In this document: in pieces, positions 5,279 through 62,591 of the stretch
Position numbering within the stretch: the first letter of the stretch is position 1
How the letters are laid out: the number at the start of each line of letters is the position of its first letter
DNA from: Marchantia polymorpha subsp. ruderalis
Taxonomy: Eukaryota; Streptophyta; Marchantiopsida; Marchantiales; Marchantiaceae
Assembly (NCBI GenBank): GCA_037833965.1
Contig: AP031355.1
Span: 9,511,501-9,575,500, forward strand
Direction: 5' to 3'
Length of the DNA stretch: 64,000 nt
Program-made: the position numbers and the translations under genes
The notes under the pieces: model-generated
Database searches by the model: none
Told to the model about the DNA's origin: nothing
The model's input: only the letters and a program-made list of their open reading frames with translations

Positions 5279-5311
5279 GATAGCGTAGTGCTAGTTAGAA
5301 TCTTTTGAGGG

Positions 5312-27360: not shown

Positions 27361-27582
27361 TGTGGTAACCCACTTTTTGTTTTTTGTCGGAACTAAAACA
27401 TTTTTGAAAAGTAATTACCGCGGCAGCAGCTGTAAGTAATAATCGGTACGCGAAACCAGAGTAAAAAGAGGATCGAGGACAGTCAACCGGTTTTGGGCTT
27501 AGGCCACAGTGGGACGCTTGGGACGGAACGGGCGGTTCATGCTGCAGTATCCGCTTCGAGCACCTTCGGCGGTAGATCACTC

Positions 27583-29338: not shown

Positions 29339-29367
29339 TATAAAGTAGTTCAAGGCGTTTTGCCTTG
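29339..29367 (+). promoter_or_regulatory. LTR D core promoter: TATAAAG box plus hairpin
   Basis: TATAAAG at 29339-29345 and hairpin CAAGGC-GTTTT-GCCTTG at 29351-29367, preceded by the GTAGTGCAGTGTAGTGCTAG block conserved in the other LTRs. Confidence 0.7.
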
Positions 29368-43326: not shown

Positions 43327-44267
43327 TGTAATAACCCACTAAAGGCTAAAACTGCAATATAGTGGTAGAAAGGTCGAACCCACAGGGACAGAGGAACACA
43401 CAGGGTACAAAGTGTCACGTTTAACAGACTATTGATGAGTTTGAATTCTCAGGCGACTGTCACTCCCAGAAATACTGCAAGTGTCCACTCGGAGCGCACT
43501 CGGAGGTCGCACAGTGCAGCGTAACACACACACACACACACCTGAAACTACAGAAATACAACCCAGAGATCCGTTAGGACCTCTACTCAAGATTTCAGGG
43601 GGGAAGTCTCTCAAGAGTACACTCAGCGAAGCTGCGGGTAGTGACTTCCAACTCCGGCTTTTACAACGCTTCCACTAGCTTGCTGCTAGTGTAGGAAACC
43701 CGGTTTGGACTGCCTACTTTGGATCGAAGTCACTCATACGCGGTGAACAACACTCTCAACTCACAAAACGCGCAGAGAACACAGGTCCGCACTGAAGGAC
43801 TCACTGAGAAACATTCCAGTAACACAACAACAGTCTATTGAAGAGTTTGAATTCTCAGGCACTTGTCATTCCCAGAAATACTACAGGGGTTACCCTCAAG
43901 GCACCTGCTGCAGCGTAACCTGAATTTACTACCAAGGCTTACACGAAGTAGCAAAACTTCACTTTGGCATTCAGGGGAAAAATCCCAAGGGAGTACAATC
44001 AGAAAGGAACACTCAAAGGTGTAGGGGCGAAACTGTTCAAGTATCTAACTAGTCACTGGCTCTGAGCATCAGCAGTCACCCGCAGGTGCAGATCCGAACT
44101 ACTCAAGTCTCTAACCAATGTACTAGCTCTGAACATTCGGCCGAAGGCCTTCAGCTACAAAATGCGGAACGCTAAGTTGTAACTCCTCGTGCGTGGTGAC
44201 AGAACTCAAGGACACAAACACGCAAAGGAAATGGGTTCCTGATCTGCACTTCTGATGGGAAAGAACC

Positions 44268-44296
44268 CCAGGCAAAACGCCTGGAACTATTTTATA
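44268..44296 (-). promoter_or_regulatory. LTR H core promoter: TATAAAAT box plus hairpin
   Basis: TATAAAAT (minus) at 44289-44296 and CCAGGC-GTTTT-GCCTGG at 44268-44284. Confidence 0.72.
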
Positions 44297-44332
44297 CCTT
44301 AAAAGTCCTACCTAGCACTACACTGCACTACG

Positions 44333-47300
44333 CTACACGCCTGCACGGAACCACGCTACACTACACTCCGCGGAACCTGTACTACGTCTCCTGCGCGGCC
44401 GACTGCCGCGCACTAACTCCCTACCCTGCCAATCTTCCGCTCGACTGCGCAGTCCCAACCGCTGCAACGCCGCGGACACCTCCCCTTCGAGGGCGGACAT
44501 GGTATCCTGTGCCTTCGACAGAAAGGCATCGAGCTTCTTTGCTACCTTCCGCCGACTCCTACTGTCGCCTGACAACAACCCGGCTACGCGCAATTCAAAC
44601 TCACGCAGTGTGAGTTTCTCCTGCGCCTTCACTTCCCAGTGGGCATAGCCCTTGAGACAGTGGGCGACTCGCCTCGCCGTCTCCATCTTCGTGCGATCCG
44701 CCTCCTTCCTGCGATCCTCTTCAATTATCACTAATTGCGATTCGGCTTCAGCACGTTGCGCTCTCAATTCGCCACACTCTGACTGCAACCTGCGGATTAA
44801 CTCTTCATCCGCCTGCCGTGCGAGCTGACATTGTTCCAACAACCGTGTCTGTCGCACGAGCTCCTCTGACAAAATCCGATTCTGGGCCTGCTTAGAGTTG
44901 AGTGCTTCCTTGACCTTCACCTGCTCCTTGGTGAGCTCGCCCAGTTTCTCATCCTTCATCTTCTCGGAGTGCTTGTAGAATTTCTGATTAAGCTTGTACT
45001 GACCCCACAAGCACGCATGCTTCTCCTTCAATTCCTTCAACTCCTGGTCCACTCTAGCTAATAGCTTGCTGGTGTGGACTTTAGTGCGAGTCCGCCTGCG
45101 CACTAACTCGATGTAAGATCCCGGCTGGAGTGGGTCGGCGTATTTATCGACCTTGCGATCCAAGTACCGCAGCAACGGAATCACCTGCTTAGAGAGCGCC
45201 GCCGCCGGCGCTCCAACAATTTCCTCCTCCTCCTCCTCGGTGTCTTCTGCTCCTGACATTTCTTCCGTGGAGCCTCCGTCGTCATCATCCGAGTGGAGAA
45301 TTTCAGTCGCCATTGATTGCGTCGGCGACTGCCCCGAGTGGGGCTGCACGTCATCGACGTGTGCTGCCTGCGAAGGCACGGCTGCAGCCTCGCTGCTCGT
45401 TGCCAAAATGTCTAAGGCGGAAGGCGAACGTACCCGTGCGGCATCCCCGTCTCTCGCTTGTTGATTGTCTACCGCGTCCTCTCTGTCTCCGTCGTCCGCC
45501 GCCGAAGGCGATCGAGCGGAAGGTGGCTGCGCGGGGTTGGATTGCGCATCGCGCATCAAGATTTCATCCCGCGGACAGTCACTCCGCTCCATCGTCTGCT
45601 GCTCCCTTGATCGGTCCGTGGGGGCTGTGCCCGGCCCGTGCGCAGGCGCATTTGTCGGCGCCTTGTCCGCCGCAGGCGTAGCGCCGCGGACATCTATCGC
45701 CGAAGGCGACATGGCCGGGGGCCGCACGCCCGATGTTCCTTGGCCTATAGGCCCTACCGCCGAAGGCGCATCTATCGGCGGACTTCCCGCCGATGGTGCG
45801 GCCTCCGCACGCTCTCTGCTCGTATCTCCTCGGCTCGAAGGCCCTGGCGCCGAAGGCGCAAATTGCGGCGCGTGGTGCGCCGGAGGGTCTGGCCCCAAGG
45901 GCCGGTGTCTCGTAGGCGGTTCTTCCGCCGGCTCCTTCCCCTTCCTACGTTGGAACGGGGGTGATTCTTGCCTGTGCACATGCGGCACGTGTGGAGGTGT
46001 CCTGTGCACAGGCGGACTGCTCCTTCCCACGCGTAAGCGTAGATCCACGTCCACTTGTGTTCGCCGGTCTGCGGAGGCTCGTCCGTCCGCGGAGGCTCGT
46101 CTGTGCGCAAACGGAACATCTGTCCGCATCGCACGTGGTAACTCCGGAGGCCCTTGGCCCGTAGGCGGCCTTTCTCCCGTCGAGGTTGCAGCGTGGCCCG
46201 TTGCTCCTGCGGTCGTCCGCGCTTCCTCCTGTCTCTCTGGCGACGCACTTCCTATCTCCGTCGCAATTGTCGCCGTGTCCGCACTGTCGGCTGGTAACAC
46301 CAGTCTGCGTGCCTTCTGCTTCGGCCGGCTGTATGGCTCGCACAGCGGCCGCGGTCGAATGGGAGCAGAGGGTTCTTGATGCTGCTCCTCTTCAGACTCT
46401 TCCCTCCATCGCCGCTTCCGCGGCACTCGCGCTGCAGGAGTGTGTCTCCCTTCGTCCCTCCGTCTTGATGGGGTAGAAGTCGGTGACTCCTCTGCATCAG
46501 TGTCGACCTCGTTCTCCCGCACATACTTCCCGGGATGGTCGATGGACAATGGCGGAAAATGTTCAAGCTCCGCCGCTGTCAAACAATTCCGCTGTCGATA
46601 AAAATTGATGAGGAAAGGAGAAAGATGGTTTAAAGTTCCCCCCTTCTCCTCAAACGCGTGTTGTCGCATCACCCTGTGCAGGATGCTCGCCCAGTGAATT
46701 GGAGTTCCCTCGATGACGCACTCCACAAAAGAGACCTGCCACAATGTGATGTAGCAGGCGCGGTGCGGCTGCAGTAATTGCATCAGCGCCGCGGACAAAG
46801 TCCGGCGAAATCGATCCTTGTAATCACGGGTCCTGTACCCATTCTTGGTAGACCTCCCGGTCTTGAACAGCTCCACGAATTGCGCCTCTTCTTGCTTGGT
46901 CACCTTGATGCTCTCACTGTCGAAAAGGAGATGCCCTGGCATGCCAGCACATCTTCCCAACGCCTGCGCCCAATCTTGGACTGTCCACCGGTCAACATGC
47001 GGACGCAATCCGCGCGAGGGTGGTCCCTGTGGCTCTAGCCACTCGCGCACCATATTCGCACAGATGTAATTCCATCCCCATAGCAAGAAATCGAGCTTTC
47101 TTGCTATTAAGCGCTCCTCAAAAGCGCGCAGCCCGTTCTGCGGTAGGCGAAGTGGCACCATCCGCAATCTGCTCGGTCTCGTCATTGCGTTCCTGGGGTT
47201 CGCTCGCCCGCTCATTCTACTTCCGCACTGCCCGCGCTTCTTTCTCTCTCGGCAAACTCTAATCGCCCTCAATTCCAAATCACGCGCACTCACTTCTCCC

Positions 47301-47437
47301 TCAATCAACAAGAAATCTCCTGTGCGACGACGTCGAGAATGTTCCGCAGCCAGCAGATGGATGCGCGCAGCGCGCACAAGAGATTGGAATCGCGAATTCA
47401 AGAATGGGACGTTCTCCGCCGCCCGGTCGAAGGTCAT
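44333..47437 (-). CDS. Intact LTR-U3-encoded protein in solo LTR H, 1034 aa
   Basis: Complete frame from ATG 47437 (conserved alternative ATG 47185) to the stop at 44333-44335. Same layout as the copy at 7964-11101: globular 85-310, Pro/Arg/His-rich middle, acidic block, coiled coil, RRRRSTGSAECS tail. It is 11 residues shorter because one run of the CTGTGCACAGG palindrome repeat is missing from the PVHRR region. A solo LTR normally has no genes; this one would retain both the ORF and the sequences upstream of it. Confidence 0.85.
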   Translation of the reverse strand: MTFDRAAENVPFLNSRFQSLVRAARIHLLAAEHSRRRRTGDFLLIEGEVSARDLELRAIRVCRERKKRGQCGSRMSGRANPRNAMTRPSRLRMVPLRLPQNGLRAFEERLIARKLDFLLWGWNYICANMVREWLEPQGPPSRGLRPHVDRWTVQDWAQALGRCAGMPGHLLFDSESIKVTKQEEAQFVELFKTGRSTKNGYRTRDYKDRFRRTLSAALMQLLQPHRACYITLWQVSFVECVIEGTPIHWASILHRVMRQHAFEEKGGTLNHLSPFLINFYRQRNCLTAAELEHFPPLSIDHPGKYVRENEVDTDAEESPTSTPSRRRDEGRHTPAARVPRKRRWREESEEEQHQEPSAPIRPRPLCEPYSRPKQKARRLVLPADSADTATIATEIGSASPERQEEARTTAGATGHAATSTGERPPTGQGPPELPRAMRTDVPFAHRRASADGRASADRRTQVDVDLRLRVGRSSPPVHRTPPHVPHVHRQESPPFQRRKGKEPAEEPPTRHRPLGPDPPAHHAPQFAPSAPGPSSRGDTSRERAEAAPSAGSPPIDAPSAVGPIGQGTSGVRPPAMSPSAIDVRGATPAADKAPTNAPAHGPGTAPTDRSREQQTMERSDCPRDEILMRDAQSNPAQPPSARSPSAADDGDREDAVDNQQARDGDAARVRSPSALDILATSSEAAAVPSQAAHVDDVQPHSGQSPTQSMATEILHSDDDDGGSTEEMSGAEDTEEEEEEIVGAPAAALSKQVIPLLRYLDRKVDKYADPLQPGSYIELVRRRTRTKVHTSKLLARVDQELKELKEKHACLWGQYKLNQKFYKHSEKMKDEKLGELTKEQVKVKEALNSKQAQNRILSEELVRQTRLLEQCQLARQADEELIRRLQSECGELRAQRAEAESQLVIIEEDRRKEADRTKMETARRVAHCLKGYAHWEVKAQEKLTLREFELRVAGLLSGDSRSRRKVAKKLDAFLSKAQDTMSALEGEVSAALQRLGLRSRAEDWQGRELVRGSRPRRRRSTGSAECSVAWFRAGV

Positions 47438-48590
47438 GGTCGGCTCTTGCTCGTGAAGAACGTCTCACTTGATGGTCGCGCCGGCTGTACGCTGAAACGG
47501 TCTTCGCTCTCACGCGCGGCTTCACGCTCCGCCGTCGTCGATTAAACTCTCACGCTCGAATTGGCGGATTTGAACTTCGCGAGCGTGTCACCCTGCGGAC
47601 ATGGGGGCGTAGCGCCAAAGGCGAGTTTTCCGCCTTGCGCGGTACACTTGTTCGTACCGCCCCTCGGCCAATCCCCCTCTGCCTTGACGCGTGTGTCCGC
47701 ATGTCGGACAAAAGTTCAACTCCTGCCTGTGCGCACGCAGGAGCCTCGGCGGATTCTCCGCCGGTGCGGAACTTCATCCTCCTGTGCACAGGCGTTCGCC
47801 TGTGCGCAAGCGAATTCCGTGCGCTACGTCGCGCTGGCGCGGAAGGCGTTGACCGTGGTCAGCCGTCTCCGTCCAGTCTGTCCGTTCCTTGTCTCTTCGT
47901 CGGCGCTTCCGCCGCCGCAACTCCGTCCGTCCAAGAGCGCATCCACCCGTGCCGTCCGCATGGTCCGTACCGATTGGATTACTCTCGCGGCTCTTCCGAC
48001 GTACGGGGCGCTGCGCTGGCGCGGAAGGCGCCGTACACTTTCTACCGCACAAGGCGCATTTCTAGGGCCCAAGGCGGATTTTCCGCCGACGCCGAAGCGC
48101 CTGTGCACAGGCGAGCGCCTGTGCGTAGGCGGACTTCGCGCCGGTGGCGAACTCCTTCCGCCGTAGGCGACCGCCTCCGTTTCTTCCAATAGCGATAACT
48201 CCCTAAGTCCTCGTCCGTTCCAGGCGTTCTTGGGCTCGTTGGAATCAGTGCGTCGAGCTCTTTCCAACGGGATCCTAACTTGGTCAAGGCGCCCGAGGGT
48301 TGACCTAATTATGGAGGGTTTCCCTACAGCCGCGGACGCAACCTCCGAAGGCGGGTTTTGCGCCTTGCGCCGTAGAGATCCTAACTGCAGAGCTCGCAGG
48401 GAGGGTGGTGCCTGTCCTTACTGCGGCACCCCAAATCCCAGATTCTACAAGATCCCTCGAGAATCCCCGCGATCTTCCGGATTCACTCTGTTTTGATGTA
48501 CCGAAGGCTATTTACAATGCTGCCAGGGTACAGTTTTCCAAAAATGTTTTAATTTCCTCAAAATTGCCAAAAGTGGGGTACCACAAGCCT

Positions 48591-50386
48591 CCGCGGACGG
48601 ACGAGCCTCCGCGGACCGGCGAACACAAGTGGACGTGGATCTACGCTTACGCGTGGGAAGGAGCAGTCCGCCTGTGCACAGGCGCTCACCTGTGCACAGG
48701 TCGCCTGTGCACAGGACGCCTCCACACGTGCCGCCTGTGCACAGGCAAGAATCACCCCCGTTCCAACGTAGGAAGGGGAAGGAGCCGGCGGAAGAACCGC
48801 CTACGAGACACCGGCCCTCGGGGCCAGACCCTCCGGTGCACCACGCGCCGCAATTTGCGCCTTCGGCGCCAGGGCCTTCGAGCCGAGGAGATACGAGCAG
48901 AGAGCGTGCGGAGGCCGCACCATCGGCGGGAAGTCCGCCGATAGATGCGCCTTCGGCGGTAGGGCCTATAGGCCAAGGAACATCGGGCGTGCGGCCCCCG
49001 GCCATGTCGCCTTCGGCGATAGATGTCCGCGGCGCTACGCCTGCGGCGTACAAGGCGCCGGCAAATGCGCCTGCGCACGGGCCGGGCACAGCCCCCACGG
49101 ACCGATCAAGGGAGCAGCAACAGACGGAGGAGCGGAGTGACTGTCCGCGGGATGAAATCTCGACGCGCGATGCGCAATCAAACCCCGCGCAGTCACCCTC
49201 CGCTCGATCGCCTTCGGCGGCGGACGACGGCGGCAGAGAGGATGCGGTAGACAATCAACAAGCGAGCGACGGGGATGCCGCACGGGTACATTCGCCTTCC
49301 GCCTTAGACATTTTGGGGACGAGCAGCGAGGCTGCAGCCGTGCCTTCGCAGGCAGCACACGTCGATGACGTGCAGCCCCACTCGGGGCAGTCGCCGACGC
49401 AATCAATGGCGACTGAAATTCTCCACTCGGATGATGACGACGGAGGCTCCACGGAAGAAATGTCAGGAGCAGAAGACACCGAGGAGGAGGAGGAGGAAAT
49501 TGTTGGAGCGCCGGCGGCGGCGCTCTCTGAGCAGGTGATTCCGTTGCTGCGGTACTTGGATCGCAAGGTCGATAAATACGCCGACCCACTCCAGCCGGGA
49601 TCTTACATCGAGTTAGTGCGCAGGCGGACTCGCACTAAAGTCCACACCAGCAAGCTATTAGCTAGAGTGGACCAGGAGTTGAAGGAATTGAAGGAGAAGC
49701 ATGCGTGCTTGTGGGGTCAATACAAGCTTAATCAGAAATTCTACAAGCACTCCGAGAAGATGAAGGATGAGAAACTGGACGAGCTCACCAAGGAGCAGGT
49801 GAAGGTCAAGGAAGCACTCATTTCTGAGCAGGCCCAGAATCGGATTTTGTCAGAGGAGCTCGTGCGACAGACGCGGTTGTTGGAACAATGTCAGCTCGCA
49901 CGGCAGGCGGATGAAGAGTTAATCCGCAGGTTACAGTCAGAGTGTGGCGAATTGAGAGCGCAACGTGCTGAAGCCGAATCGCAATTAGTGATAATTGAAG
50001 AGGATCGCAGGAAGGAGGCGGATCGCACGAAGGTGGAGACGGCGAGGCGAGTCGCCCACTGTCTCAAGGGCTACGCCCACTGGGAAGTGAAGGCGCAGGA
50101 GAAACTCACACTGCGTGAGTTTGAATTGCGCGCAGCCGGGTTGTTGTCAGGCGACAGTAGGAGTCGGCGGAAGGTAGCAAAGAAGCTCGATGCCTTTCTG
50201 TCGAAGGCACAGGATACCATGTCCGCCCTCGAAGGGGAGGTGTCCGCGGCGTTGCAGCGGTTGGGACTGCGCAGTCGAGCGGAAGATTGGCAGGGTAGGG
50301 AGTTAGTGCGCGGCAGTCGGCCGCGCAGGAGACGTAGTACAGGTTCCGCGGAGTGTAGTGTAGCGTGGTTCCGTGCAGGCGTGTAG
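48591..50386 (+). pseudogene. LTR-U3 ORF of E 5' LTR, C-terminal half
   Basis: Open in frame to the stop at 50384-50386. Contains four closely spaced CTGTGCACAGG palindromes encoding PVHRR-like repeats (48668-48745), the acidic block and the complete coiled coil. No ATG of its own near the junction; it could only start internally (a GTG-initiated frame at 48629 is not a credible start). Confidence 0.82.
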
Positions 50387-50422
50387 CGTAGTGCAGTGTA
50401 GTGCTAGGTAGGACTTAGAAGG

Positions 50423-50450
50423 TATAAAATAGTTCGAGGCGTTTTGCCTG
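50423..50450 (+). promoter_or_regulatory. E 5' LTR core promoter: TATAAAAT box and degenerate hairpin
   Basis: TATAAAAT at 50423-50430, 36 bp after the ORF stop, with GTAGTGCAGTGTAGTGCTAG just upstream. The hairpin is TCGAGGC-GTTTT-GCCTGG here: the outer pair positions are mutated on one side, so the stem is shorter. This is where the genomic RNA of E should start. Confidence 0.7.
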
Positions 50451-51421
50451 GGGTTCTTTCCCATCAGAAGTGCAGATCAGGAACCCATTTCCTTTGCGTG
50501 TTTGTGTCCTTGAGTTCTGTCACCACGCACGAGGAGTTACAACTTAGCGTTCCGCATTTTGTAGCTGAAGGCCTTCGGCCGAATGTTCAGAGCTAGTACA
50601 TTGGTTAGAGACTTGAGTAGTTCGGATCTGCACCTGCGGGTGACTGCCGATGCTCAGAGCCAGTGACTAGTTAGATACTTGAACAGTTTCGCCCCTACAC
50701 CTTCGAGTGTTCCTTTCTGATTGTACTCCTTTGGGATTTTTCCCCTGAATGCCAAAGTGAAGTTTTGCTACTTCGTGTAAGCCTTGGTTGTAAATTCAGG
50801 TTACGCTGCAGCAGGTGCCTTGAGGGTAACCCCTGTAGTATTTCTGGGAATGACAAGTGCCTGAGAATTTAAACTCTTCAATAGACTGTTGTTGTGTTAC
50901 TGGAATGTTTCACAGTGAGTCCTTCAGTGCGGACCTGTGTTCTCTGAGCGTTTTGTGAGTTGAGAGTGTTGTTCACCGCGTATGAGTGACTTCGATCCGA
51001 AGTAGGTAGTCCAAACCGGGTTTCCTACACTAGCAGCAAGCTAGTGGAAGCGTTGTAAAAGCCGGAGTTGGAAGTCACTGCCCGCAGCTTTGCCGAGTGT
51101 ACTCTTGAGAGACTTTCCCCCTGAAATCTTGAAGTAGAGGTCCTAACGGATCTCTGGGTTGTGTTTCTGTAGTTTCAGGTGTGTGTGTGTGTGTGTGTGT
51201 GTTACGCTGCACTGTGCGACCTCCGAGTGCGCTCCGAGTGGACACTTGCAGTATTTCTGGGAGTGACAGTCGCCTGAGAATTCAAACTCATCAATAGTCT
51301 GTTAAACGTGACACTTTGTACCCTGTGTGTTCCTCTGTCCCTGTGGGTTCGACCTTTCTACCACTATATTGCAGTTTTAGCCTTTAGTGGGTTATTACAT
51401 AAGAAGCCGACAACTTCTTTT

Positions 51422-51439
51422 TGGCGCCGCTGCCGGGGA
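51422..51439 (+). other. Primer-binding site of E (tRNA-Asp type)
   Basis: TGGCGCCGCTGCCGGGGA, complementary to a tRNA-Asp-like 3' end including CCA. The distance to the LTR end (51399) is 22 nt; the spacer has AAGAAG (51401-51406) and CTTCTT (51414-51419), which can pair. Confidence 0.82.
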
Positions 51440-51485: not shown

Positions 51486-54317
51486 ATGTCGACTGGGGCT
51501 AGCGGGAGCAACCTAAGTGCTAGAGCTGTCCGCAAGTTCCGACGAGATTCAGAGAAGGCCGTGGACGAGACACGGCGTCAAAACAAGAAAACACCAAAAA
51601 GAGTATCTAAGCCTAGTTCGGCCGACACCCTTGGGGAACCTACCCCCGGCGACTCGGAACCAAACTTGGTGCTTACAGTTCTACTAGATATTCCTTGCAC
51701 GGACCCGCCTAGTGAAGTAGAACCGACCGCCCGAGAACCGTCGACAGACACACCGATGGCGGACGGACAAGCCAATGTGCGGCTACCTCAGCCGATCACT
51801 AAACATTCCTACCCGAAGTACAAAGGGAGTGGGGATGACGACGATGCAGACTCATACATCAAGTTGTTCGAGTCGGTGTCTATTGCCAATCGCGAGATCG
51901 CAGACGACGACCGACTAAGGATCTTTCCAAGCCTTCTGCGGAAGAAAGCGAGGAGTTGGTACAATCACGAGAGCATCGATCCGACTGGGTTGACAACATG
52001 GGCCCAGCTGAAGGAGAAGTTCCTTCGCCGCTATCGCGAGCTCGGCTACGACAGCCGGGTTTTAACAAAGTTACGTAATTTGCAGCGAGAGAAGAAGGAG
52101 AGTCTGCGTGACTACACTGAGAGATTTCTGGACCTCCTCGACAGAATACCGAAAACAGGACCAGGGTCCCCTTTCTCGGTACAACAAGCTGTGGATTGGT
52201 ACGTGACCGGTTTAACTCGGGAGATGGAGACTTTTTGCCGACGCAGCAAGTGCGACACTATTGAGGATGTGATTGCATCGGCAGAAGCCTTCGAAACTTC
52301 CACTCTCAACCGAAGAGGGAGAGAGAGACGGGAGTCGAAGGAGCGAAAACCGAAGGGAGGGCGAAGACGACGTAGAGGTACAACTCCGTCATCGGAGGAA
52401 TCGTCTTCGGACGAGAACCGTTCCTCATCCGAAGAAGAGGAAACCTCATCGTCGGAGGAGGAGAGGAAGAGGAGGAAGCATGGGTCAGCGAAGAAAAAGG
52501 GCACCCGACGAGTGACTACGGACAGAGCGCCGGGAGATATAGCTTCGAAGATGGAGACCCTTGTGAAGGACTTCGCCGATCTCAAGGTTCAAGTGGTAGG
52601 CGGGCATGATCGCCGAAAATCACCCGGGAGAGTGCGAGCGAACTTATGGTGTACTACGTGCGGGGCGGTGGGACATGCAAACACCGAGTGCCTTACCACC
52701 CGTCCGTCATATCCAGTCAACGCAGTAGAGTGGGCACAACCGTACTATGGAGAGCACCCTCAGTACTATGGAGAGGCTAGCGAAGAAACAGCCTACGCCG
52801 TCCAGTCGGTTCCTACCCCTCCTGCAGTTTCAGCAATGCAAGTCCCACGATATATTCCGGTGGATCGGGCCACTACAGTACCCGTGAGGCGGAGAGCACC
52901 TCCAGGGACGTTTGACCCACCGCCACCGCGAGCTTGTTATAATTGCGGGGAAGTTGGGCACTTCTCACCGCAGTGTCCCCATCCAAAAAGGCGAAACGAT
53001 TATGCTCCGACATGTAGTAATTGCAAGAAGGTCGGGCACACTGCGCCAGAGTGTGATCAGCCACCAGTCCCTCGGCCAGCGGTACGATTTGTGAACACTC
53101 CTGCCAAGGAGGACGTGCAAGTTAACCAGGTCGAAGTAGGTTCAGACGGGGATGGCGAAGACGAAGAATGGCCGGCTGAAGAGGTTATGTGCGCACGGGT
53201 CGAAACTCGTAGCTCCAAGAAATCCAAGGAGCAAGAGCGTGACACTCGCAAGCACGAACGGAGAACCGCCGACCGGACGGGAAAAGGAAAGGAGAAGACA
53301 TCCAGCAAGTCCGACTTGCGATCTGCTCGGAAGTCTTCGGCTACGCGAGAAACACCAGCAGTGCGCCCCCAGACGGCAGTCGAGGACGAGCCAGTGCGCC
53401 TACTGAAACGGGACTATGCTCCGGATATCCGCAACGAGGTAACCAACCTGTTGAAGGAAGCGATCCGCACGCAAAAGGACCCACCGCGGCCAGACTTGAC
53501 ATCCTCCCTTGGGGCGAAGTTGGCAGCCACCGTGGAACCTCGCAGAGCGTCGCCGACCACGGCGACCCAACGCGCCCACTATGACTTGGTTGAAGATCTC
53601 GGGAGTCGAAAAGTGAACATCACGTTCAAGCAGCTCTTGGAGGACAATAAGACGTATCGGAGAATGTTGATGCTTTCGCTACGGCATCCGCGGAAGCCGC
53701 GCGCATCCACATACTCTCAAGTATATCAAGTGGAGAGCGAAGACCAAGGGCCACCCGAGATCGATGTGGAAATAGCAGGGTGTTGTGTACGCAGAGTGCC
53801 AATCGACTCTGGATCAGGAGTCAACATAATGACGGAGGATACAGCGAGAGCCTTGGGGTTCAGTCAATACGAACCCTCGAAGCGTGTGTTGAGATTAGCG
53901 GATCAGACGCGGAGAATGCCTGCAGGTATGCTGCGCAATGTCAAGACAACCATCGGGGGTGCGGACTTTCGGTTGACGTATATCATCCTTCAACCGATGA
54001 TGAAGCAGGGCTATGACGTTCTGCTCGGGCGACCATGGCTATATGGTGCACAAGTCAGATGTGATTGGCGAAGACATCACCTTAAGTTTCCTCATCCTTC
54101 GGAACCGACCAAAACCATTACGGTGCCCTGGAATAGGGTCAGGCACGAAGGAGAGACCCCATCGACAAGTGCAGGTTACACATCGGGCGAGGACAGTGAG
54201 TCGACCGCGCGATCGGATTCCAGTGGTACCGAATCTGATTACTTCGTGGGATTCGTTGCCTGCTGTTCGGTGGAAGAAGAAGAAGAGCAGGAAGCTATTC
54301 AGCCGGAAGACGAATAG
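51486..54317 (+). CDS. gag-pro: Gag-protease polyprotein, 943 aa, intact
   Basis: Start ATG 51486, 46 nt after the PBS. Residues 110-270 form the retrotransposon Gag core (SWYNHESIDP, TWAQLKEKFLRRYRELGYDS). 275-345 is a Ser/Glu/Arg-rich linker. Three CCHC zinc knuckles follow: C389/C392/H397/C402, C484/C487/H492/C497 and C510/C513/H518/C523, for RNA packaging. The aspartic protease is at about 755-855 with D774-S-G and the LLGRPWL flap/end motif (846-852). A Glu-rich tail ends at UAG (54315-54317). The pol frame continues in phase, so a fraction of ribosomes would make Gag-Pro-Pol by readthrough. Confidence 0.95.
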   Translation: MSTGASGSNLSARAVRKFRRDSEKAVDETRRQNKKTPKRVSKPSSADTLGEPTPGDSEPNLVLTVLLDIPCTDPPSEVEPTAREPSTDTPMADGQANVRLPQPITKHSYPKYKGSGDDDDADSYIKLFESVSIANREIADDDRLRIFPSLLRKKARSWYNHESIDPTGLTTWAQLKEKFLRRYRELGYDSRVLTKLRNLQREKKESLRDYTERFLDLLDRIPKTGPGSPFSVQQAVDWYVTGLTREMETFCRRSKCDTIEDVIASAEAFETSTLNRRGRERRESKERKPKGGRRRRRGTTPSSEESSSDENRSSSEEEETSSSEEERKRRKHGSAKKKGTRRVTTDRAPGDIASKMETLVKDFADLKVQVVGGHDRRKSPGRVRANLWCTTCGAVGHANTECLTTRPSYPVNAVEWAQPYYGEHPQYYGEASEETAYAVQSVPTPPAVSAMQVPRYIPVDRATTVPVRRRAPPGTFDPPPPRACYNCGEVGHFSPQCPHPKRRNDYAPTCSNCKKVGHTAPECDQPPVPRPAVRFVNTPAKEDVQVNQVEVGSDGDGEDEEWPAEEVMCARVETRSSKKSKEQERDTRKHERRTADRTGKGKEKTSSKSDLRSARKSSATRETPAVRPQTAVEDEPVRLLKRDYAPDIRNEVTNLLKEAIRTQKDPPRPDLTSSLGAKLAATVEPRRASPTTATQRAHYDLVEDLGSRKVNITFKQLLEDNKTYRRMLMLSLRHPRKPRASTYSQVYQVESEDQGPPEIDVEIAGCCVRRVPIDSGSGVNIMTEDTARALGFSQYEPSKRVLRLADQTRRMPAGMLRNVKTTIGGADFRLTYIILQPMMKQGYDVLLGRPWLYGAQVRCDWRRHHLKFPHPSEPTKTITVPWNRVRHEGETPSTSAGYTSGEDSESTARSDSSGTESDYFVGFVACCSVEEEEEQEAIQPEDE

Positions 54318-54323
54318 CAATTA
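54315..54323 (+). promoter_or_regulatory. Candidate stop-codon readthrough signal UAG CAA UUA
   Basis: The gag-pro stop is followed by CAA TTA, which fits the UAG-CAR-YYA leaky-stop consensus first described for tobamoviruses. The downstream frame is open for 946 codons in the same phase and lacks an early ATG, so this is probably how Pol is made. Confidence 0.75.
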
Positions 54324-57158
54324 ACTGTGGGACTGGGAAGGAGTGAGACGAGTCACACCGAGGGCATTGTCGACCCTAGTGACTGTCACGAAGTACAACT
54401 CAGTCCCGGCAAGTGCTTGAAGGTATCAAGCGCAGTGAGAGGAGACGAACTAAGGAAAGTACAGGCATTCCTTAGCCATTATGTCGACGTCTTCGCCTGG
54501 AAGATCGAAGACATGAAGGGGATACCTGCACGGTATGGGGAACACCGTATCGATTTACTGGACGACTTAGTACCCATACGACAGCGCCAGTATCGCCTCA
54601 ACCCAAAATACTCCTTGCTAGTGAAAGAGGAGATAGATAAGTACTTGAGCGCTGGTATTATTTACCCTGTGCTCAGCAGCGAGTGGGTGTCGCCGATTGT
54701 TATCGTACCCAAGAAGTTGACGGGTAAGATACGAGTGTGTCAGGATTTCCGGAAGTTGAATGCAGCAACACGCAAGGACCATCACCCGTTACCATTCACG
54801 GATGCCATTCTAGACCATGTCGCAGGACATGAATGTTATAGCTTCCTGGATGGGTTCTCAGGTTACAATCAGGTGTCTATCCGTGAACAGGACAAGGATA
54901 AAACTACGTTCACAACCGACTGGGGAACTTACGCATACCACAAGATGCCCTTCGGTCTGTGCAACGCGCCTGCCACCTTTCAACGGATGATGACCAATAT
55001 CTTTCAGGAACAACTGAGGAAGTTCCTGGAAATATTCATAGATGACTTCTGTGTCTTTGGGAAGCGGTCTGAACACTTAAGTCACTTGAAGCAGACCTTC
55101 GATAAATGTAGAGAGAGCAGTTTATCACTGCATCCCGAGAAGTGCTTTTTCTTCATGACTAGTGGGATCTTGTTGGGTCATCGGGTCTCGGCAGACGGCA
55201 TTGCGGTGGACATCGAGAAGGTCAAGGTTATACTCGAGCTTGAGCCACCCACGAATCTAAGAGAGCTGCGAGCATTCCTGGGTCATGTGGGCTACTACCG
55301 AAGATTCATACACATGTATGCAATACTGGCGGCGGACCTGACCAAGTTGTTGAAGAAGGACGAGCCTTATGCTTGGGGTGCGAAACAGCAGTCAGCCTTT
55401 GAGACTCTTAAAGCGAAACTCACGACTGCTCCCGTACTAAGGAGTCCAGACTGGAATCGACCATTCCATGTTTACGTTGACACCTCGGCATTCGCCATCG
55501 GTGTAGTACTGAGTCAAAAGGATGACAACAAAAAGGACTACCCGATCTACTTCGCGAGCCGACAGCTGTCCCTAGCAGAGCAGAAGTACACCACGACGGA
55601 GAGAGAAGCGTTGGGGATGGTGTACTCCTGTAAAAAGTTCCGTCACTACCTAATCTGCTACGAGTTTGTGTTCCATGTGGACCACTACGCATTGCAACAC
55701 CTAGTCAAGAAAGCCGACCTATCCGGTCGAATCGCCAGGTGGGTGTTGTTACTACAAGAGTTCACCTACACAGTCCAGACCAGGAAAGGGGTGCACCACG
55801 AAAATGCGGATTACTTGTCCCGATTATGGACACAGCCGACAGAGGAGGAATTGGTGGACGATTTTCCAGATGAAGAGTTATTTCAGTTGTCTGCAGGACA
55901 TGAGTCCCGCTATGCCGACCTGTATCGATATCTGCTAACCCTCCAGTGTCCCGAAGGCATGGATTTGGAACAGCGAACTGTCTTTATTCATAAGGCAGGC
56001 CCGTACCAACTCCAGCAGGGGGTTTTGTTCAAGAAGATGGCAGATGAGCGCTTATGCAGATGCCTGGAGGAATCAGAGGTACCAAGAATAGTTAGTGCGA
56101 TGCATACTGAGGAGGCGGGTGGACACTATGCCACCAGGAACACGGTCACAAAAATCCTAAATGCGGGGTATTGGTGGCCGACCATGTTTAAGGATGTTCT
56201 CGATTACATCCGCAAGTGCGACAGTTGCCAGAGGACGGGGAGACCGACGCCTACAACACGCTGGCCCCTGACTCCCATCATGCCTCTAGCACCATTCGAA
56301 AAGTGGGGTATTGACTTCGTAGGGCCGATACAACCAGTGACTAGAAGTACACGAAGGCGCTACATTCTGGTAGCAACGGACTACGCCACCAAAATGGTAG
56401 AGGCCAGGGCCACCAGAAGGGATGATGCTGCCACAGTGGCAGCATTCTTGTTTGAGTCGATCATCACACGCTACGGATGTCCCTTAGAGCTAGTCAGCGA
56501 CCGGGGCACGCATTTTCTGAATCAGATCATCGAAGATCTGACACGGTATTTCCACATCAAGCACCGGAAGACTACTCCATACAATCCCAAGGCAAATGGA
56601 CTGACGGAGAAGTCCAATGGTCTGCTGTGTAAAATACTACTCAAGGTCACGGTGAATCACGCTCACGACTGGGATACGAAGCTAGTAGCCGCTCTATGGG
56701 CGTACCGCACAGCTGAGAAGATCACGACCAAACAGACACCATACTTTCTGGTGTATGGGCAACACCCGATCCTCCCGATCGAATTTGAAGTACCCACCCA
56801 ACGAACGTTGGATTTGCAGAGGATGGGCGCAGAGGAGAGTCAGCTCTACAGGTTACAGGAGGTCACGCTGCTGGATGAGAGGAGAAGAGACGCCGAAGAT
56901 CGCACCAGGAAAATCCAGCTCCGCCGAAAGGAGAGATACGATAAAAAGATCAAACCGGTACTCCTGCAGGCGGGTGATTTGGCATTGCTCTACGACAGCA
57001 GGCATGCCAGATTCCCAGGCAAACTGCACCTAAGGTGGATGGGTCCTTACAGGGTTGTCGAAGTTTTCCCGAATGGATCCATCCAACTTGCGGACCTGGC
57101 CGGCGATTTGTTAGGCACCCGAGTGAACGGGTGGCGGTTGAAGAAATACCACATGTGA
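54318..57158 (+). CDS. pol: Pol: reverse transcriptase, RNase H, integrase (readthrough frame), intact
   Basis: Open in the gag frame from the codon after UAG; there is no ATG until about codon 66, so readthrough is the likely start. Numbering from the GTG at 54327: RT about 85-290, with catalytic D175 in LDGFSGY, the MPFGLCNAPATFQ motif (207-219) and FIDD (237-240). RNase H about 375-500 with D385, E427, D452 and D495. Integrase zinc finger H593/H600/C631/C634. Integrase core D663, D725 and E761, a D,D(35)E triad. The C-terminal region (GPYRVVEVFPNGSIQLADL) has no chromodomain. Stop TGA at 57156-57158, 37 nt before the 3' LTR. All catalytic residues are present, so the enzyme set appears functional. 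Confidence 0.95.
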   Translation, partial: QLTVGLGRSETSHTEGIVDPSDCHEVQLSPGKCLKVSSAVRGDELRKVQAFLSHYVDVFAWKIEDMKGIPARYGEHRIDLLDDLVPIRQRQYRLNPKYSLLVKEEIDKYLSAGIIYPVLSSEWVSPIVIVPKKLTGKIRVCQDFRKLNAATRKDHHPLPFTDAILDHVAGHECYSFLDGFSGYNQVSIREQDKDKTTFTTDWGTYAYHKMPFGLCNAPATFQRMMTNIFQEQLRKFLEIFIDDFCVFGKRSEHLSHLKQTFDKCRESSLSLHPEKCFFFMTSGILLGHRVSADGIAVDIEKVKVILELEPPTNLRELRAFLGHVGYYRRFIHMYAILAADLTKLLKKDEPYAWGAKQQSAFETLKAKLTTAPVLRSPDWNRPFHVYVDTSAFAIGVVLSQKDDNKKDYPIYFASRQLSLAEQKYTTTEREALGMVYSCKKFRHYLICYEFVFHVDHYALQHLVKKADLSGRIARWVLLLQEFTYTVQTRKGVHHENADYLSRLWTQPTEEELVDDFPDEELFQLSAGHESRYADLYRYLLTLQCPEGMDLEQRTVFIHKAGPYQLQQGVLFKKMADERLCRCLEESEVPRIVSAMHTEEAGGHYATRNTVTKILNAGYWWPTMFKDVLDYIRKCDSCQRTGRPTPTTRWPLTPIMPLAPFEKWGIDFVGPIQPVTRSTRRRYILVATDYATKMVEARATRRDDAATVAAFLFESIITRYGCPLELVSDRGTHFLNQIIEDLTRYFHIKHRKTTPYNPKANGLTEKSNGLLCKILLKVTVNHAHDWDTKLVAALWAYRTAEKITTKQTPYFLVYGQHPILPIEFEVPTQRTLDLQRMGAEESQLYRLQEVTLLDERRRDAEDRTRKIQLRRKERYDKKIKPVLLQAGDLALLYDSRHARFPGKLHLRWMGPYRVVEVFPNGSIQLADLAGDLLGTRVNGWRLKKYHM

Positions 57159-57181: not shown

Positions 57182-57195
57182 TGAGGAGGGGGGCA
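57182..57195 (+). other. Polypurine tract of E
   Basis: TGAGGAGGGGGGCA directly before the 3' LTR start TGTGGTACC at 57196; primer for plus-strand DNA synthesis. Confidence 0.85.
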
Positions 57196-58441
57196 TGTGG
57201 TACCCCACTTTTGGCAATTTTGAGGAAATTAAAACATTTTTGGAAAACTGTACCCTGGCAGCATTGTAAATAGCCTTCGGTACATCAAAACAGAGTGAAT
57301 CCGGAAGATCGCGGGGATTCTCGAGGGATCTTGTAGAATCTGGGATTTGGGGTGCCGCAGTAAGGAAAGGCACCACCCTCCCTGCGAGCTCCGCAGTTAG
57401 GATCTCTACGGCGCAAGGCGCAAAACCCGCCTTCGGAGGTTGCGTCCGCGGCTGTAGGGAAACCCCCGTAATTAGGTAAACCCTCGGGCGCCTTGACCAA
57501 GTTAGGGTCCCGTTGGAAAGAGCTCGACGCGCTGATTCTAACGAGCCCAAGAACGCTTGGAACGGACGAGGACTTAGGGAGTTATCGCTACTGGAAGAAA
57601 CGGAGGCGGTCGCCTACGGCGGAAGGAGTTCGCCACCGGCGCGAATTCCGCCTACGCAGAAGGGGGAATCAAGTTTTGTCCTATGCACGGACGAAGGCGT
57701 TCGCCTGTGCACAGGCGAAGTAGGGTTAGGGAAGGCGCGAAGTCCGCCTACGCACAGGCGAACGCCTGTGCACAGGCACTATGGCGTCGGCGGAAAATCC
57801 GCCTTGGGCCCTAGAAATGCGCCTTGTGAGGTAGAAAGTGTACGGCGCCTTCCGCGCCAGCGCAGCGCCGCGTACGTCGGAAGAGCCGCCAGAGTAATCC
57901 AATCGGTACGGACCATGCTGACGGCCCGGGTGGATGCGCTCTTGGACGGACGGAGTTGTGGCGGCGGAAGCGCCGACGGAGAGACAAGGAACGGACAGAC
58001 TGGACGGAGACGGCTGACCACGGTCAACGCCTTCCGCGCCAGCGCAGCGCCGCGGACGGAATTCGCCTGCGCACAGGCGAACGCCTGTGCACAGGAGGAT
58101 GTTCAAGTTCCGCGCCGGCGGAGAATCCACCGAGGCCCCTGCCTGCGCACAGGCAGGAGTTGAATTTTTGTCCGACATGCGGACACACGCGTCAAGGCAG
58201 CGGGAGATTGGCCGAGGGGCGGTACGAACAAGTGTACCGCGCAAGGCGGAAAACTCGCCTTCGGCGCTACGCCCCCATGTCCGGAGGGTGACACGCTCGC
58301 GGAGTTCAAATCCGCCAATTCGAGCGTGAGAGTTTAATCGACGACGGCGGAGCGTGAAGCCGCGCGTGAGAGCGAAGACCGTTCCAGCGTACAGCCGGCG
58401 CGGCCATCAAGTGAGACGTTCTTCACGACCAAGAGCCGACC

Positions 58442-61400
58442 ATGACCTTCGACCGGGCGGCGGAGAACGTCCCATTCTTGAATTCGCGATTCCAATCTCT
58501 TGTGCGCGCTGCGCGCATCCATCTGCTGGCTGCGGAACATTCTCGACGTCGTCGCACAAGAGATTTCTTGTTGATTGAGGGAGAAGTGAGTGCGCGTGAT
58601 TTGGAATTGAGAGCGATTAGAGTTTGCCGAGAGAGAAAGAAACGCGGGCAGTGCGGAAGTAGAATGAGCGGGCGAGCGAACCCCAGGAACGCAATGACGA
58701 GACCGAGCAGATTGCGGATGGTGCCACTTCGCTTGCCGCAGAACGGGCTGCGCGCTTTTGAGGAGCGCTTAATAGCAAGAAAGCTCGATTTCTTGCTATG
58801 GGGATGGAATTACATCTGTGCGAATATGGTGCACGAGTGGCTAGAGCCACAGGGACCACCCTCGCGCGGATTGCGTCCGCATGTTGATCGGTGGACAGTC
58901 CAAGATTGGGCGCAGGCGTTGGGAAGATGTGCTGGCATGCTAGGGCATCTCCTTTTCGACAGTGAGAGCATCAAGGTGACCAAGCAAGAAGAGGCGCAAT
59001 TTGTGGAGCTGTTCAAGACCGGGAGGTCTACCAAGAATGGGTACAGGACCCGTGATTACAAGGATCGATTTCGCCGGACTTTGTCCGCGGCGCTGATGCA
59101 ATTACTGCAGCCGCACCGCGCCTGCTACATCACATTGTGGCAGGTCTCTTTTGTGGAGTGCGTCATCGAGGGAACTCCAATTCACTGGGCGAGCATCCTG
59201 CACAGGGTGATGCGACAGCACGCGTTTGAGGAGAAGGGGGGAACTCTAAACCATCTTTCTCCTTTCCTCATCAATTTTTATCGACAGCGGAATTGTTTGA
59301 CAGCGGCGGAGCTTGAACATTTTCCGCCATTGTCCATCGACCATCCCGGGAAGTATGTGCGGGAGAACGAGGTCGATACTGATGCAGAGGAGTCCCCGAC
59401 TTCTACCCCATCAAGACGGAGAGACGAAGGGAGACACACCCCTGCAGCGCGAGTGCCGCGGAAGCGGCGATGGAGGGAAGAGTCTGAAGAGGAGCAGCAT
59501 CAAGAACCCTCTGCTCCCATTCGACCGCGGCCGCTGTGCGAGCCATACAGCCGGCCGAAGCAGAAGGCACGCAGACTGGTGTTACCAGCTGACAGTGCAG
59601 ACACGGCGACGATTGCGACGGAGATAGGAAGTGCGTCGCCAGAGAGGCGAGAAGAAGCGCGGACGACCGCAAGAGCAACGGGCCACGCTGCAACCTCGTC
59701 GGGAGAGAGGCCGCCTACGGGCCAAGGGCCTCCTGAGTTACCACGGGCGATGCGGACAGATGTTCCGTTTGCGCACAGGCGAACCTCCGCGGACGGACGA
59801 GCCTCCGCGGACCGGCGAACACAAGTGGACGTGGATCTACGCTTACGCGTGGGAAGGAGCAGTCCGCCTGTGCACAGGCGCTCACCTGTGCACAGGTCGC
59901 CTGTGCACAGGACACCTCCACACGTGCCGCCTGTGCACAGGCAAGAATCACCCCCGTTCCAACGTAGGAAGGGGAAGGAGCCGGCGGAAGAACCGCCTAC
60001 GAGACACCGGCCCTCGGGGCCAGACCCTCCGGCGCACCACGCGCCGCAATTTGCGCCTTCGGCGCCAGGGCCTTCGAGCCGAGGAGATACGAGCAGAGAG
60101 CGTGCGGAGGCCGCACCATCGGCGGGAAGTCCGCCGATAGATGCGCCTTCGGCGGTAGGGCCTATAGGCCAAGGAACATCGGGCGTGCGGCCCCCGGCCA
60201 TGTCGCCTTCAGCGATAGATGTCCGCGGCGCTACGCCTGCGGCGGACAAGGCGCCGGCAAATGCGCCTGCGCACGGGCCGGGCACGGCCCCCACGGACCG
60301 ATCAAGGGAGCAGCGGACGATGGAGCGGAGCGACTGTCCGCGGGATGAAATCTCGATGCGCGATGCGCAATCTAACCCCGCGCAGCCACCCTCCGCTCAA
60401 TCGCCTTCGGCGACGGACGACGGCGACAGAGAGAATGCGGTAGGCAATCAACCAGCGAGCGACGGGGATGCCGCTCGGGTACATTCGCCTTCCGCCTTAG
60501 ACATTTTGGCGACGAGCAGCGAGGCTGCAGCCGTGCCTTCGCAGGCAGCACACGTCGAGGACGTGCAGCCCCACTCGGGGCAGTCGCCGACGCAATCAAT
60601 GGCGACTGAAATTCTCCACTCGGATGATGACGACGGAGGCTCCACGGAAGAAATGTTAGGAGCAGAAGACACCGAGGAGGAGGAGGAGGAAATTGTTGGA
60701 GCGCCGGCGGCGGCGCTCTCTGAGCAGGTGATTCCGTTGCTGCGGTACTTGGATCGCAAGGTCGATAAATACGCCGACCCACTCCAGCCGGGATCTTACA
60801 TCAAGTTAGTGCGCAGGCGGACTCGCACTAAAGTCCACACCAGCAAGCTATTAGCTAGAGTGGACCAGGAGTTGAGGGACTTGAAGGAGAAGCATGAGTG
60901 CTTGTGGGGACAGTACAAGCTTAATTAGAAATTCTACAAGCACTCCGAGAAGATGAAGGATGAGAAACTGGGCGAGCTCACCAAGGAGCAGGTGAAGGTC
61001 AAGGAAGCGCTCGATTCTGAGCAGGCCCAGAATCGGATTTTGTCAGAGGAGCTCGTGCGACAGACGCGGTTGTTGGAACAATGTCAGCTCGCACGGCAGG
61101 CGGATGAAGAGTTAATCCGCAGGTTGCAGTAAGAGTGTGGCGAATTGAGAGCGCAACGTGCTGAAGCCGAATCGCAATTAGTGATGATTGAAGAGGATCG
61201 CAGGAAGGAGGCGGATCGCACGAAGGTGGAGACGGCGAGGCGAGTCGCCCACTGTCTCAAGGGCTACGCCCACTGGGAAGTGAAGGCGCAGGAGAAACTC
61301 ACACTGCGTGAGTTTGAATTGCGCGCAGCCGGGTTGTTGTCAGGCGACAGTAGGAGTCGGCGGAAGGTAGCGAAGAAGCTTGAAGCCTTTCTGTCGAAGG

Positions 61401-61579
61401 CACAGGATACCATGTCCGCCCTCGAGGGGGGGGTGTCCGCGGCGTTGCAGCGGTTGGGACTGCGCAGTCGAGCGGAAGAGTGGCAGGGTAGGGAGTTAGT
61501 GCGCGGCAGTCGGCCGCGCAGGAGACGTAGTACAGGTTCCGCGGAGTGTAGTGTAGCGTGGTTCCGTGCAGGCGTGTAG
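58442..61579 (+). pseudogene. LTR-U3 ORF of E 3' LTR, two nonsense codons
   Basis: Full-length, 1046 codons in one frame, but broken by CAG to TAG at 60926-60928 (start of the coiled coil, LN-stop) and TCA to TAA at 61130-61132. Otherwise no indels. The 5' LTR copy has neither stop, so they arose after integration or the two LTRs have different histories. A truncated 828-aa protein (globular, Pro-rich and acidic regions, start of the coiled coil) could still be made. Confidence 0.88.
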
Positions 61580-61615
61580 CGTAGTACAGTGTAGTGCTAG
61601 GTAGGACTTAGAAGG

Positions 61616-61644
61616 TATAAAATAGTTCCAGGCGTTTTGCCTGG
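61616..61644 (+). promoter_or_regulatory. E 3' LTR core promoter: TATAAAAT box plus hairpin
   Basis: TATAAAAT 61616-61623 and perfect hairpin CCAGGC-GTTTT-GCCTGG at 61628-61644. In the 3' LTR it could drive transcription outward into LTR G. Confidence 0.72.
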
Positions 61645-62591
61645 GGTTCTTTCCCATCAGAAGTGCAGATCAGGAACCCATTTCCTTTGCGTGTTTGTGT
61701 CCTTGAGTTCTGTCACCACGCACGAGGAGTTACAACTTAGCGTTCCGCATTTTGTAGCTGAAGGCCTTCGGCCGAATGTTCAGAGCTAGTACATTGGTTA
61801 GAGACTTGAGTAGTTCGGATCTGCACCTGCGGGTGACTGCCGATGCTCAGAGCCAGTGACTAGTTAGATACTTGAACAGTTTCGCCCCTACACCTTCGAG
61901 TGTTTCTTTCTGATTGTACTCCTTGGGATTTTTCCCCTGAATGCCAAAGTGAAGTTTTGCTACTTCGTGTAAGCCTTGGTTGTAAATTCAGGTTACGCTG
62001 CAGCAGGTGCCTTGAGGGTAACCCCTGTAGTATTTCTGGGAATGACAAGTGCCTGAGAATTTAAACTCTTCAATAGACTGTTGTTGTGTTACTGGAATGT
62101 TTCACAGTGAGTCCTTCAGTGCGGACCTGTGTTCTCTGCGCGTTTTGTGAGTTGAGAGTGTTGTTCACCGCGTATGAGTGACTTCGATCCGAAGTAGGTA
62201 GTCCAAACCGGGTTTCCTACACTAGCAGCAAGCTAGTGGAAGCGTTGTAAAAGCCGGAGTTGGAAGTCACTGCCCGCAGCTTTGCCGAGTGTACTCTTGA
62301 GAGACTTTCCCCCTGAAATCTTGAAGTAGAGGTCCTAACGGATCTCTGGGTTGTGTTTCTGTAGTTTCAGGTGTGTGTGTGTGTGTGTGTGTGTTACGCT
62401 GCACTGTGCGACCTCCGAGTGCGCTCCGAGTGGACACTTGCAGTATTTATGGGAGTGACAGTCGCCTGAGAATTCAAACTCATCAATAGTCTGTTAAACG
62501 TGACACTTTGTACCCTGTGTGTTCCTCTGTCCCTGTGGGTTCGACCTTTCTACCACTATATTGCAGTTTTAGCCTTTAGTGGGTTATTACA

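What the first reader, a model, noticed from the sequence alone, without database searches (positions are those of the whole stretch)
57196..62591. A retrotransposon whose giant LTR carries a ~1045-codon gene in U3
In every 5.4-kb LTR here, a long ORF lies between the LTR start and the TATA box, so it is in U3. It follows that a full element has it twice, the genomic RNA carries it as a 3'-terminal gene after pol and the PPT, and every solo LTR keeps it. The only arrangement I know like this is the U3-encoded accessory gene of MMTV; I know no plant parallel. The protein (globular, Pro-rich, acidic, coiled-coil) is unrecognised.
Basis: partly seen in the sequence, partly recalled or inferred. 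Interest (0 to 1): 0.92.

Follow-up and report, generated by a model that had tools for sequence, protein, structure and literature searches.

The report
Retrotransposon LTR carrying its own gene
In a liverwort, a very common jumping element carries a large, still-conserved protein gene inside its long terminal repeats, so that a repeat copy left alone in the genome can still be a copy of that gene; what the protein does is unknown.

Summary
The host is Marchantia polymorpha. The 5.4-kb repeats are true LTRs: TG...CA ends, PBS, PPT, and 12 solo LTRs with perfect 5-bp duplications that span the whole ORF region. A 1045-codon ORF (LTR 1247-4384) ends 36 bp before the only TATAAA of the LTR. The copy at 57196-62591 is itself broken (two stops); intact copies lie at 7964-11101(-) and 44333-47437(-).

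The ORF is coding and under purifying selection: differences shared between copies fall on codon positions 1/2/3 as 23/25/72, and dN/dS between the two intact copies is 0.25, with no amino-acid change in 235 N-terminal-domain residues. Diverged LTR families B and D have the same layout; 19 of 20 D-type ORFs tested are followed within 133 bp by the core promoter. Exact 33-mers from the ORF occur 1299 and 1738 times. A related LTR family (C) lacks the ORF.

All named relatives are from Marchantia; no Pfam match reaches its cut-off; structure prediction failed. Likeliest: a U3-encoded accessory protein, like MMTV sag in position only. Start site, splicing and function are untested. New variant of a known kind.

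The parts
57196..62591 (+). 3' LTR of a complete family-A element, 5396 bp
   Evidence: PPT directly upstream, TG...CA ends
58442..61579 (+). LTR ORF, 1045 codons plus stop; this copy broken at codons 829 and 897
61614..61646 (+). core promoter: TATAAA (61616-61621) and palindrome CCAGGC-GTTTT-GCCTGG (61628-61644)
   Evidence: start site inferred, not mapped
61647..62591 (+). R-U5 (limits inferred), conserved in families A, B and C
57183..57195 (+). polypurine tract
40738..51399 (+). 5' LTR of the same element, interrupted by a nested solo LTR (43327-48585, - strand, flanks AGGCT); both ORF pieces open
51422..51439 (+). primer binding site TGGCGCCGCTGCCGGGGA (tRNA-Asp type, recalled)
51486..54317 (+). 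Gag-protease frame (Retrotrans_gag, zinc knuckles, aspartyl protease), ending in UAG CAA UUA
54318..57158 (+). RT-RNase H-integrase frame, in frame with the Gag frame
7964..11101 (-). intact LTR ORF (1045 aa) inside the family-A LTR 6951-12347
44333..47437 (-). intact LTR ORF (1034 aa) inside the nested solo LTR 43327-48585
13752..19148 (-). family-A LTR with the ORF broken (first stop at codon 107)
37292..40737 (+). truncated family-A LTR; ORF open for 734 codons to the truncation
1378..6234 (+). family-B solo LTR (flanks GTAGT); same ORF present, in two frames, then TATA (5312) and R-U5
27361..30314 (+). family-C solo LTR (flanks GTATC/GTATA), no ORF; R-U5 94% identical to family A from 29302

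Best explanation
It is a Ty3/gypsy LTR retrotransposon of Marchantia polymorpha whose LTR holds a large accessory gene upstream of the core promoter, so that U3 = 5' segment + gene + TATA. SHOWN: true LTR ends; a coding ORF under purifying selection; the same order in diverged families B and D; absence in a fourth (C). INFERRED: genomic RNA starts at the conserved TATA just after the gene, so the gene is the last cistron of that RNA; it must then be expressed from a spliced RNA (5' LTR start, acceptor before the ORF in the 3' LTR) or from a promoter in the first 1.2 kb of the LTR, in which case solo LTRs would be complete genes. SPECULATIVE: the protein (N-terminal domain, basic clusters, proline-rich middle, acidic stretch, basic C-terminal part, no membrane-like segment) is a nuclear accessory factor acting on the element's own promoter or on the nuclear phase of its cycle. 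Likelihoods: coding accessory gene in the LTR 0.97; strictly U3 0.85; nuclear or regulatory role 0.35.
For: TSD-flanked solo LTRs. Shared differences by codon position 23/25/72 in a set not picked by the ORF and 25/15/91 in a larger, partly ORF-picked set. dN/dS 0.245 between intact copies, dN 0 in residues 88-322. Families A and B: 0.20-0.24 in the N-terminal part. Core promoter within 57-133 bp of the ORF in 19 of 20 D-type copies tested, and ORF sequence before the core in 4 of 4 PBS-adjacent LTRs on contig C1. TATA and R-U5 conserved in A, B and C. Basic clusters and no membrane-like segment.
Against: No transcript, start site or protein was seen. Six upstream ATGs precede the ORF in the LTR. 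Family C, mobile (TSD GGTTA), does without the ORF in cis. Many copies are broken: in the window and in most D-type places listed. The protein has no recognisable domain, so any function is a guess.
Confidence: 0.8

Rival explanations
1. The genomic RNA starts upstream of the ORF: the ORF lies in a very long R and is the first cistron, like an extra ORF before gag; the TATA after it is weak or serves another transcript.
For: Long R regions have been proposed: for rice Retrosat2 U3 1-244, R 245-2266, U5 2267-3292 (PMC3485330, passages). It would make translation simple. In family D a TATAAATAG lies about 70 bp into the LTR.
Against: The only TATAAA of the family-A LTR follows the ORF; its 33-bp surroundings are the most constant stretch seen between families, also in ORF-less family C; the D-family upstream TATA reads TGTAAATAG in family A.
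Confidence: 0.12
2. The sense ORF downstream of pol is an env-like protein that came to lie in the LTR.
For: Same sense as gag-pol and 3' of pol, as in plant env-like extra ORFs (PMC7264820, parts 1-2 of 3 read).
Against: No membrane-like segment (highest 19-residue Kyte-Doolittle mean 1.14 in P0005, 1.35 in the most hydrophobic relative tested), 17% Pro in residues 421-700, several basic clusters.
Confidence: 0.04
3. A different mobile element or a host gene inserted at a fixed place in the LTR is carried as a passenger without function for the element.
For: Family C shows an LTR without the ORF; A-C homology resumes at the ORF stop.
Against: Purifying selection across copies and families; the ORF was found next to the LTR core in 19 of 20 plus 4 of 4 places tested; relatives were found only as Marchantia proteins and unnamed sequences.
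Confidence: 0.03
4. A chance open frame in GC-rich, repeat-rich LTR sequence.
For: The LTR is GC-rich (up to 0.69 per 250 bp) and opposite-strand open frames of about 300 codons exist in the same region.
Against: Third-position excess of shared differences and dN/dS well below 1.
Confidence: 0.01

Closest known systems
MMTV sag (accessory gene in the LTR of a betaretrovirus)
   Same: Protein gene inside the LTR, downstream of the other genes; LTR exceptionally long because of it (PMC3026287, passages).
   Different: Sag is expressed from mapped spliced RNAs with an acceptor just upstream of the ORF, which is unknown here; no Sag family among the Pfam hits; MMTV LTR about 1.3 kb, here 5.4 kb; a plant retrotransposon without a found env gene, not an animal retrovirus.
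Antisense extra ORFs (aORF-3R) of Tat-type plant elements: Grande gene23, RIRE2, Retand (Transposase_28)
   Same: Extra protein after pol in plant Ty3/gypsy elements; Grande's product is nuclear (PMC7264820); Retand aORFs encode Transposase_28 (PMC11963269, passages).
   Different: Those lie in the internal region in antisense; this one is sense and inside the LTR; no Transposase_28 match.
Sense extra ORFs (env-like) of Athila and Bagy2
   Same: Sense orientation, downstream of pol.
   Different: Those lie between pol and the 3' LTR and some have transmembrane domains; here the gene lies inside the LTR with no membrane-like segment.
Retrosat2/RIRE3/RIRE8 ORF0
   Same: Large LTRs and an extra ORF of unknown function (PMC3485330, passages).
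[not shown]
   Same: Tat/Athila-branch elements found in Marchantia, where no additional RNase H was detected (PMC10508981, passages); this element also shows none by Pfam.
   Different: Membership not tested by an RT tree; the passages read do not mention a gene in the LTR.

Membership tests
Ty3/gypsy LTR retrotransposon | gag, protease, RT, RNase H, integrase in that order; PBS, PPT, TG...CA LTRs, short TSD | tested here: met
Chromovirus | chromodomain at the integrase end | tested here: not met
   no chromodomain in the Pfam scan of the pol frame
Tat clade | additional RNase H (aRH) | tested here: not met
   only RT_RNaseH-type hits; aRH was reported undetected in Marchantia elements too, while Tat Z members occur there (PMC10508981)
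Tat/Athila branch | RT/integrase phylogeny | not tested
   no reference set was used
Retand/Grande-type aORF | antisense ORF between pol and 3' LTR | tested here: not met
   the ORF is sense and inside the LTR
Retand/Grande-type aORF | Transposase_28 domain | tested here: not met
   no hit; genome search also empty but its controls were silent
Plant env-like gene | transmembrane segment | tested here: not met
   (hydropathy only)
MMTV sag-type LTR gene | protein gene inside the LTR, upstream of the promoter | tested here: inconclusive
   inside the LTR: met; upstream of the start site: TATA position only
MMTV sag-type LTR gene | spliced mRNA with an acceptor before the ORF | not testable with these tools
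   no RNA data
MMTV sag-type LTR gene | sequence homology to Sag | tested here: not met
   no Sag family among Pfam hits (that Pfam holds a Sag model is recalled)

The most novel reading that the evidence does not exclude
The LTR is a self-contained selfish gene cassette: the U3-encoded protein is a trans-acting regulator that binds LTRs, possibly at the conserved palindrome between TATA and start site. ORF-bearing LTRs, solo ones included, would then be both target and potential source of the factor, and ORF-less LTRs (family C) would exploit it in trans.
Probability: 0.15. Interest if true: 0.9.

Novelty: new variant of a known kind. Interest (0 to 1): 0.75.

Why it matters
In the plant literature I read, LTRs are regulatory, not protein-coding. 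Here a 1045-codon gene under selection sits inside the LTR of an abundant, recently active element of a model plant, and reduction of an element to a solo LTR leaves the gene behind. It gives a tractable plant system in which to ask how a gene upstream of a retroelement's own promoter is expressed, why it is kept there, and whether solo LTRs go on making protein.

Tried and rejected
Wrong LTR boundaries, or a foreign element nested at a fixed place: rejected by TSD-flanked solo LTRs and by the same layout in families A, B and D.

Start at the conserved 'NAM' methionine 85 with the first 84 codons as leader: considered because in the family-B copy and in L039 a stop lies 39 and 30 nt upstream of it. 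Rejected for A and D: the upstream ATG is present in six of six further D-type copies, the frame from it is open in five of them (L085 has a stop soon after the ATG), and the extension aligns to A with dN/dS 0.28-0.54.

Fold: AlphaFold with 8 rows gave mean pLDDT 43.7 and with 26 rows 45.0, so no fold search was run. Sequence profile against the PDB: one hit at E 0.28. Profile comparison with the Gag frame: nothing. Pfam: only weak hits below the curated cut-offs (Extensin_1 E 0.00019 in P0001, CENP-K 0.0018 in P0002, Inj_translocase 0.02 in P0005 and others weaker). PF20167 and PF04195 in the genome: no match, but the controls were silent too. NCBIfam: nothing. Rfam, 51300-64000: nothing. Viral contigs: nothing.

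RNA hairpin from the palindrome: pairs in families A-D with one compensated double change, but folding energy is unexceptional (z -0.93 and -1.02). One search was the same count with a faulty pattern and gave nothing.

ORF-less complete elements: of 20 C-type LTR ends fetched, 17 were located; none is followed by the normal leader plus PBS, though two begin with the first 13 or so leader bases.

Papers searched for a precedent; for MMTV; for Marchantia elements. The library holds open-licence papers only.
Full report
Setting. The window is G000:C6:9511501-9575500 of a 241,466,482-base, nine-contig genome. Named protein relatives are from Marchantia polymorpha subsp. ruderalis, and one, P0001, matches this genome at 98% over residues 81-710. 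MpTak2_v7.1 is reported as 241,484,302 bp in nine sequences (PMC13078153, passages). The host is therefore M. polymorpha.

The element. The LTR at 57196-62591 runs TGTGGTACCCCA to TGGGTTATTACA. The internal region 51400-57195 has a PBS (tRNA-Asp type, recalled), a Gag-protease frame and an RT-RNase H-integrase frame, and a PPT directly before the 3' LTR. Pfam shows no chromodomain and no second RNase H. The 5' LTR is 40738-51399, split by a nested solo LTR of the same family (43327-48585, flanks AGGCT). Of 36 full-length LTR rows read (33 distinct), 12 are solo with identical 5-bp flanks, and three LTR pairs have matching outer flanks. One solo (L034) shares its flank with two LTRs followed by internal sequence (L018, L025), so it belongs to a locally duplicated insertion. 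The LTR pairs differ at 14 of 5369, 23 of 5406 and 6 of 5410 sites, so the insertions are young; the last pair lies about 27 kb apart, perhaps with a nested insertion.

The gene. In LTR coordinates the ORF is 1247-4384, 1045 codons and a stop. TATAAA at 4421 is the only one in the LTR. In the finding's own copy the ORF is 58442-61579 with stops at codons 829 and 897; the copy at 13752 is also broken. Intact window copies: 7964-11101(-) and 44333-47437(-). Of 44 scored genome copies, 40 have no internal stop, a sample picked by ORF score. Of eight LTRs picked by whole-LTR DNA, six have the ORF fully open, three of those in one tandem array. Of the 12 TSD-flanked solo LTRs, nine have it fully open.

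Selection. In a set not picked by the ORF (eight LTRs picked by DNA plus seven window copies or pieces, 15 rows), sites varying in two or more rows number 23, 25 and 72 at codon positions 1, 2 and 3 of 1046 each; private ones 47, 41 and 72. In 34 LTRs, many picked by ORF score, with thinly covered columns dropped, shared sites are 25/15/91 and private ones 75/64/129. Between the two intact window copies dN/dS is 0.245; in residues 88-322 dN is 0 and dS 0.079. Between A and B the N-terminal part gives 0.20-0.24 with dS 1.9-2.9; the C-terminal part gives pN/pS 0.40 with dS saturated. The first 84 residues align to six of six further D-type copies with dN/dS 0.28-0.54; the frame from the upstream ATG is open in five, and L085 has a stop soon after it.

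Conserved arrangement. Family B, one solo LTR at 1378-6234 (flanks GTAGT), has the same ORF in two frames, then TATA and R-U5. Family D, read in L039, has LTR start, ORF (with a stop in its N-terminal part), TATA and R-U5 matching A to position 5075, where another LTR is inserted, so its end is not seen. From the 63 scored D-type places, most of them with stops, I tested 20 whose match reached the protein's end: 19 have at least 31 of 33 bases of the core promoter 57-133 bp downstream; one has 23 of 33 against a shuffle maximum of 22. Four PBS-adjacent LTRs with the C/D-type core on contig C1 all carry ORF sequence before the core, one with an internal deletion. Family C keeps the LTR start and an R-U5 that is 94% identical to A from the ORF stop onward, but has no ORF: four distinct LTRs were read in full (the window's and L041-L043); L041 has perfect flanks GGTTA. 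Forty places similar to its U3 were scored genome-wide; the rest were not read for an ORF.

Abundance. Exact matches: family-A core 33-mer 2116, N-terminal-domain 33-mer 1299, C-terminal 33-mer 1738, leader/PBS 30-mer 693, C/D core 1010; reversed controls 0 in each. These count k-mers, not intact genes, and miss older copies.

The protein. Residues 85-322 are conserved; the models call them helical but with pLDDT 44-45. Residues 421-700 are 17% Pro, 701-760 strongly acidic, 761-1045 basic overall, with a heptad signal in 961-1025 (5 of 2000 shuffles reach it), weaker in 801-870 (65 of 2000) and absent in three other stretches tested. The most invariant block of the six-sequence alignment is about 762-798. 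Basic clusters at 65, 340 and elsewhere could serve nuclear import; no membrane-like segment. A profile search found 39 relatives: 33 named M. polymorpha proteins and six unnamed sequences from one source; one search added P0007, also M. polymorpha. The tool needs shared exact words and scored only the best 7993 candidates, so distant relatives may be missed.

How it may work. The genomic RNA most likely starts about 30 bp after the TATA, so it carries the gene at its 3' end, after the PPT. Translation from it would need splicing or re-initiation; alternatively a promoter in the first 1.2 kb makes an LTR-only mRNA. Six upstream ATGs argue against a long unspliced leader. A palindrome 12-28 bp after the TATA start is kept in all four families, with a double change in family A that preserves it: 29 of 33 A-type rows have the fully paired form, two have 5 of 6 pairs and two did not match the pattern. 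It could be a site for a dimeric protein or a cap-proximal hairpin; I cannot tell which. A nuclear or regulatory role fits the basic clusters and the precedent of Grande's nuclear extra protein (PMC7264820) but is inference.

Novelty. A gene inside an LTR is known for MMTV (PMC3026287, passages). The accounts of plant extra ORFs that I read place them in the internal region (PMC7264820, parts 1-2 of 3; PMC11963269 and PMC6317226, passages). My searches listed no plant LTR with a gene inside; I saw mostly listings, and the library is limited to open-licence papers. Hence: new variant of a known kind.

Noticed in passing
54315-54323: The Gag-protease and RT frames are in the same frame, split by UAG CAA UUA, which resembles the tobamovirus-type leaky stop (recalled); suggests readthrough.
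   Followed up: no
G000:C6:28276249-28366397; also C2:31340886-31385622: Head-to-tail arrays of LTR-internal units: nine internal regions at exact 11156-bp spacing and five cores at 11184-bp spacing; a triple LTR at C6:8281765-8309532.
   Followed up: no
61628-61644 and relatives: Palindrome just downstream of TATA, kept in families A-D with a compensated double change in A.
   Followed up: partly
27361-30314; L041-L043: ORF-less LTR family C with R-U5 94% identical to family A but a repeat-rich, different U3.
   Followed up: partly
L050, L055: Two C-type LTRs are followed by about the first 13 leader bases and then unrelated sequence, stopping short of the PBS.
   Followed up: no
G000:C1 about 2.33-3.27 Mb: Core-promoter places recur at near-constant offsets of about 0.4 and 0.35 Mb (listing), suggesting a large repeated segment on the 5.6-Mb contig C1.
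   Followed up: no
33360-33959: Tandem repeat of a 100-bp unit (family D7).
   Followed up: no
P0031: A gene model joins the N-terminal domain (71% identical to family A) to a different, charged C-terminal part.
   Followed up: no
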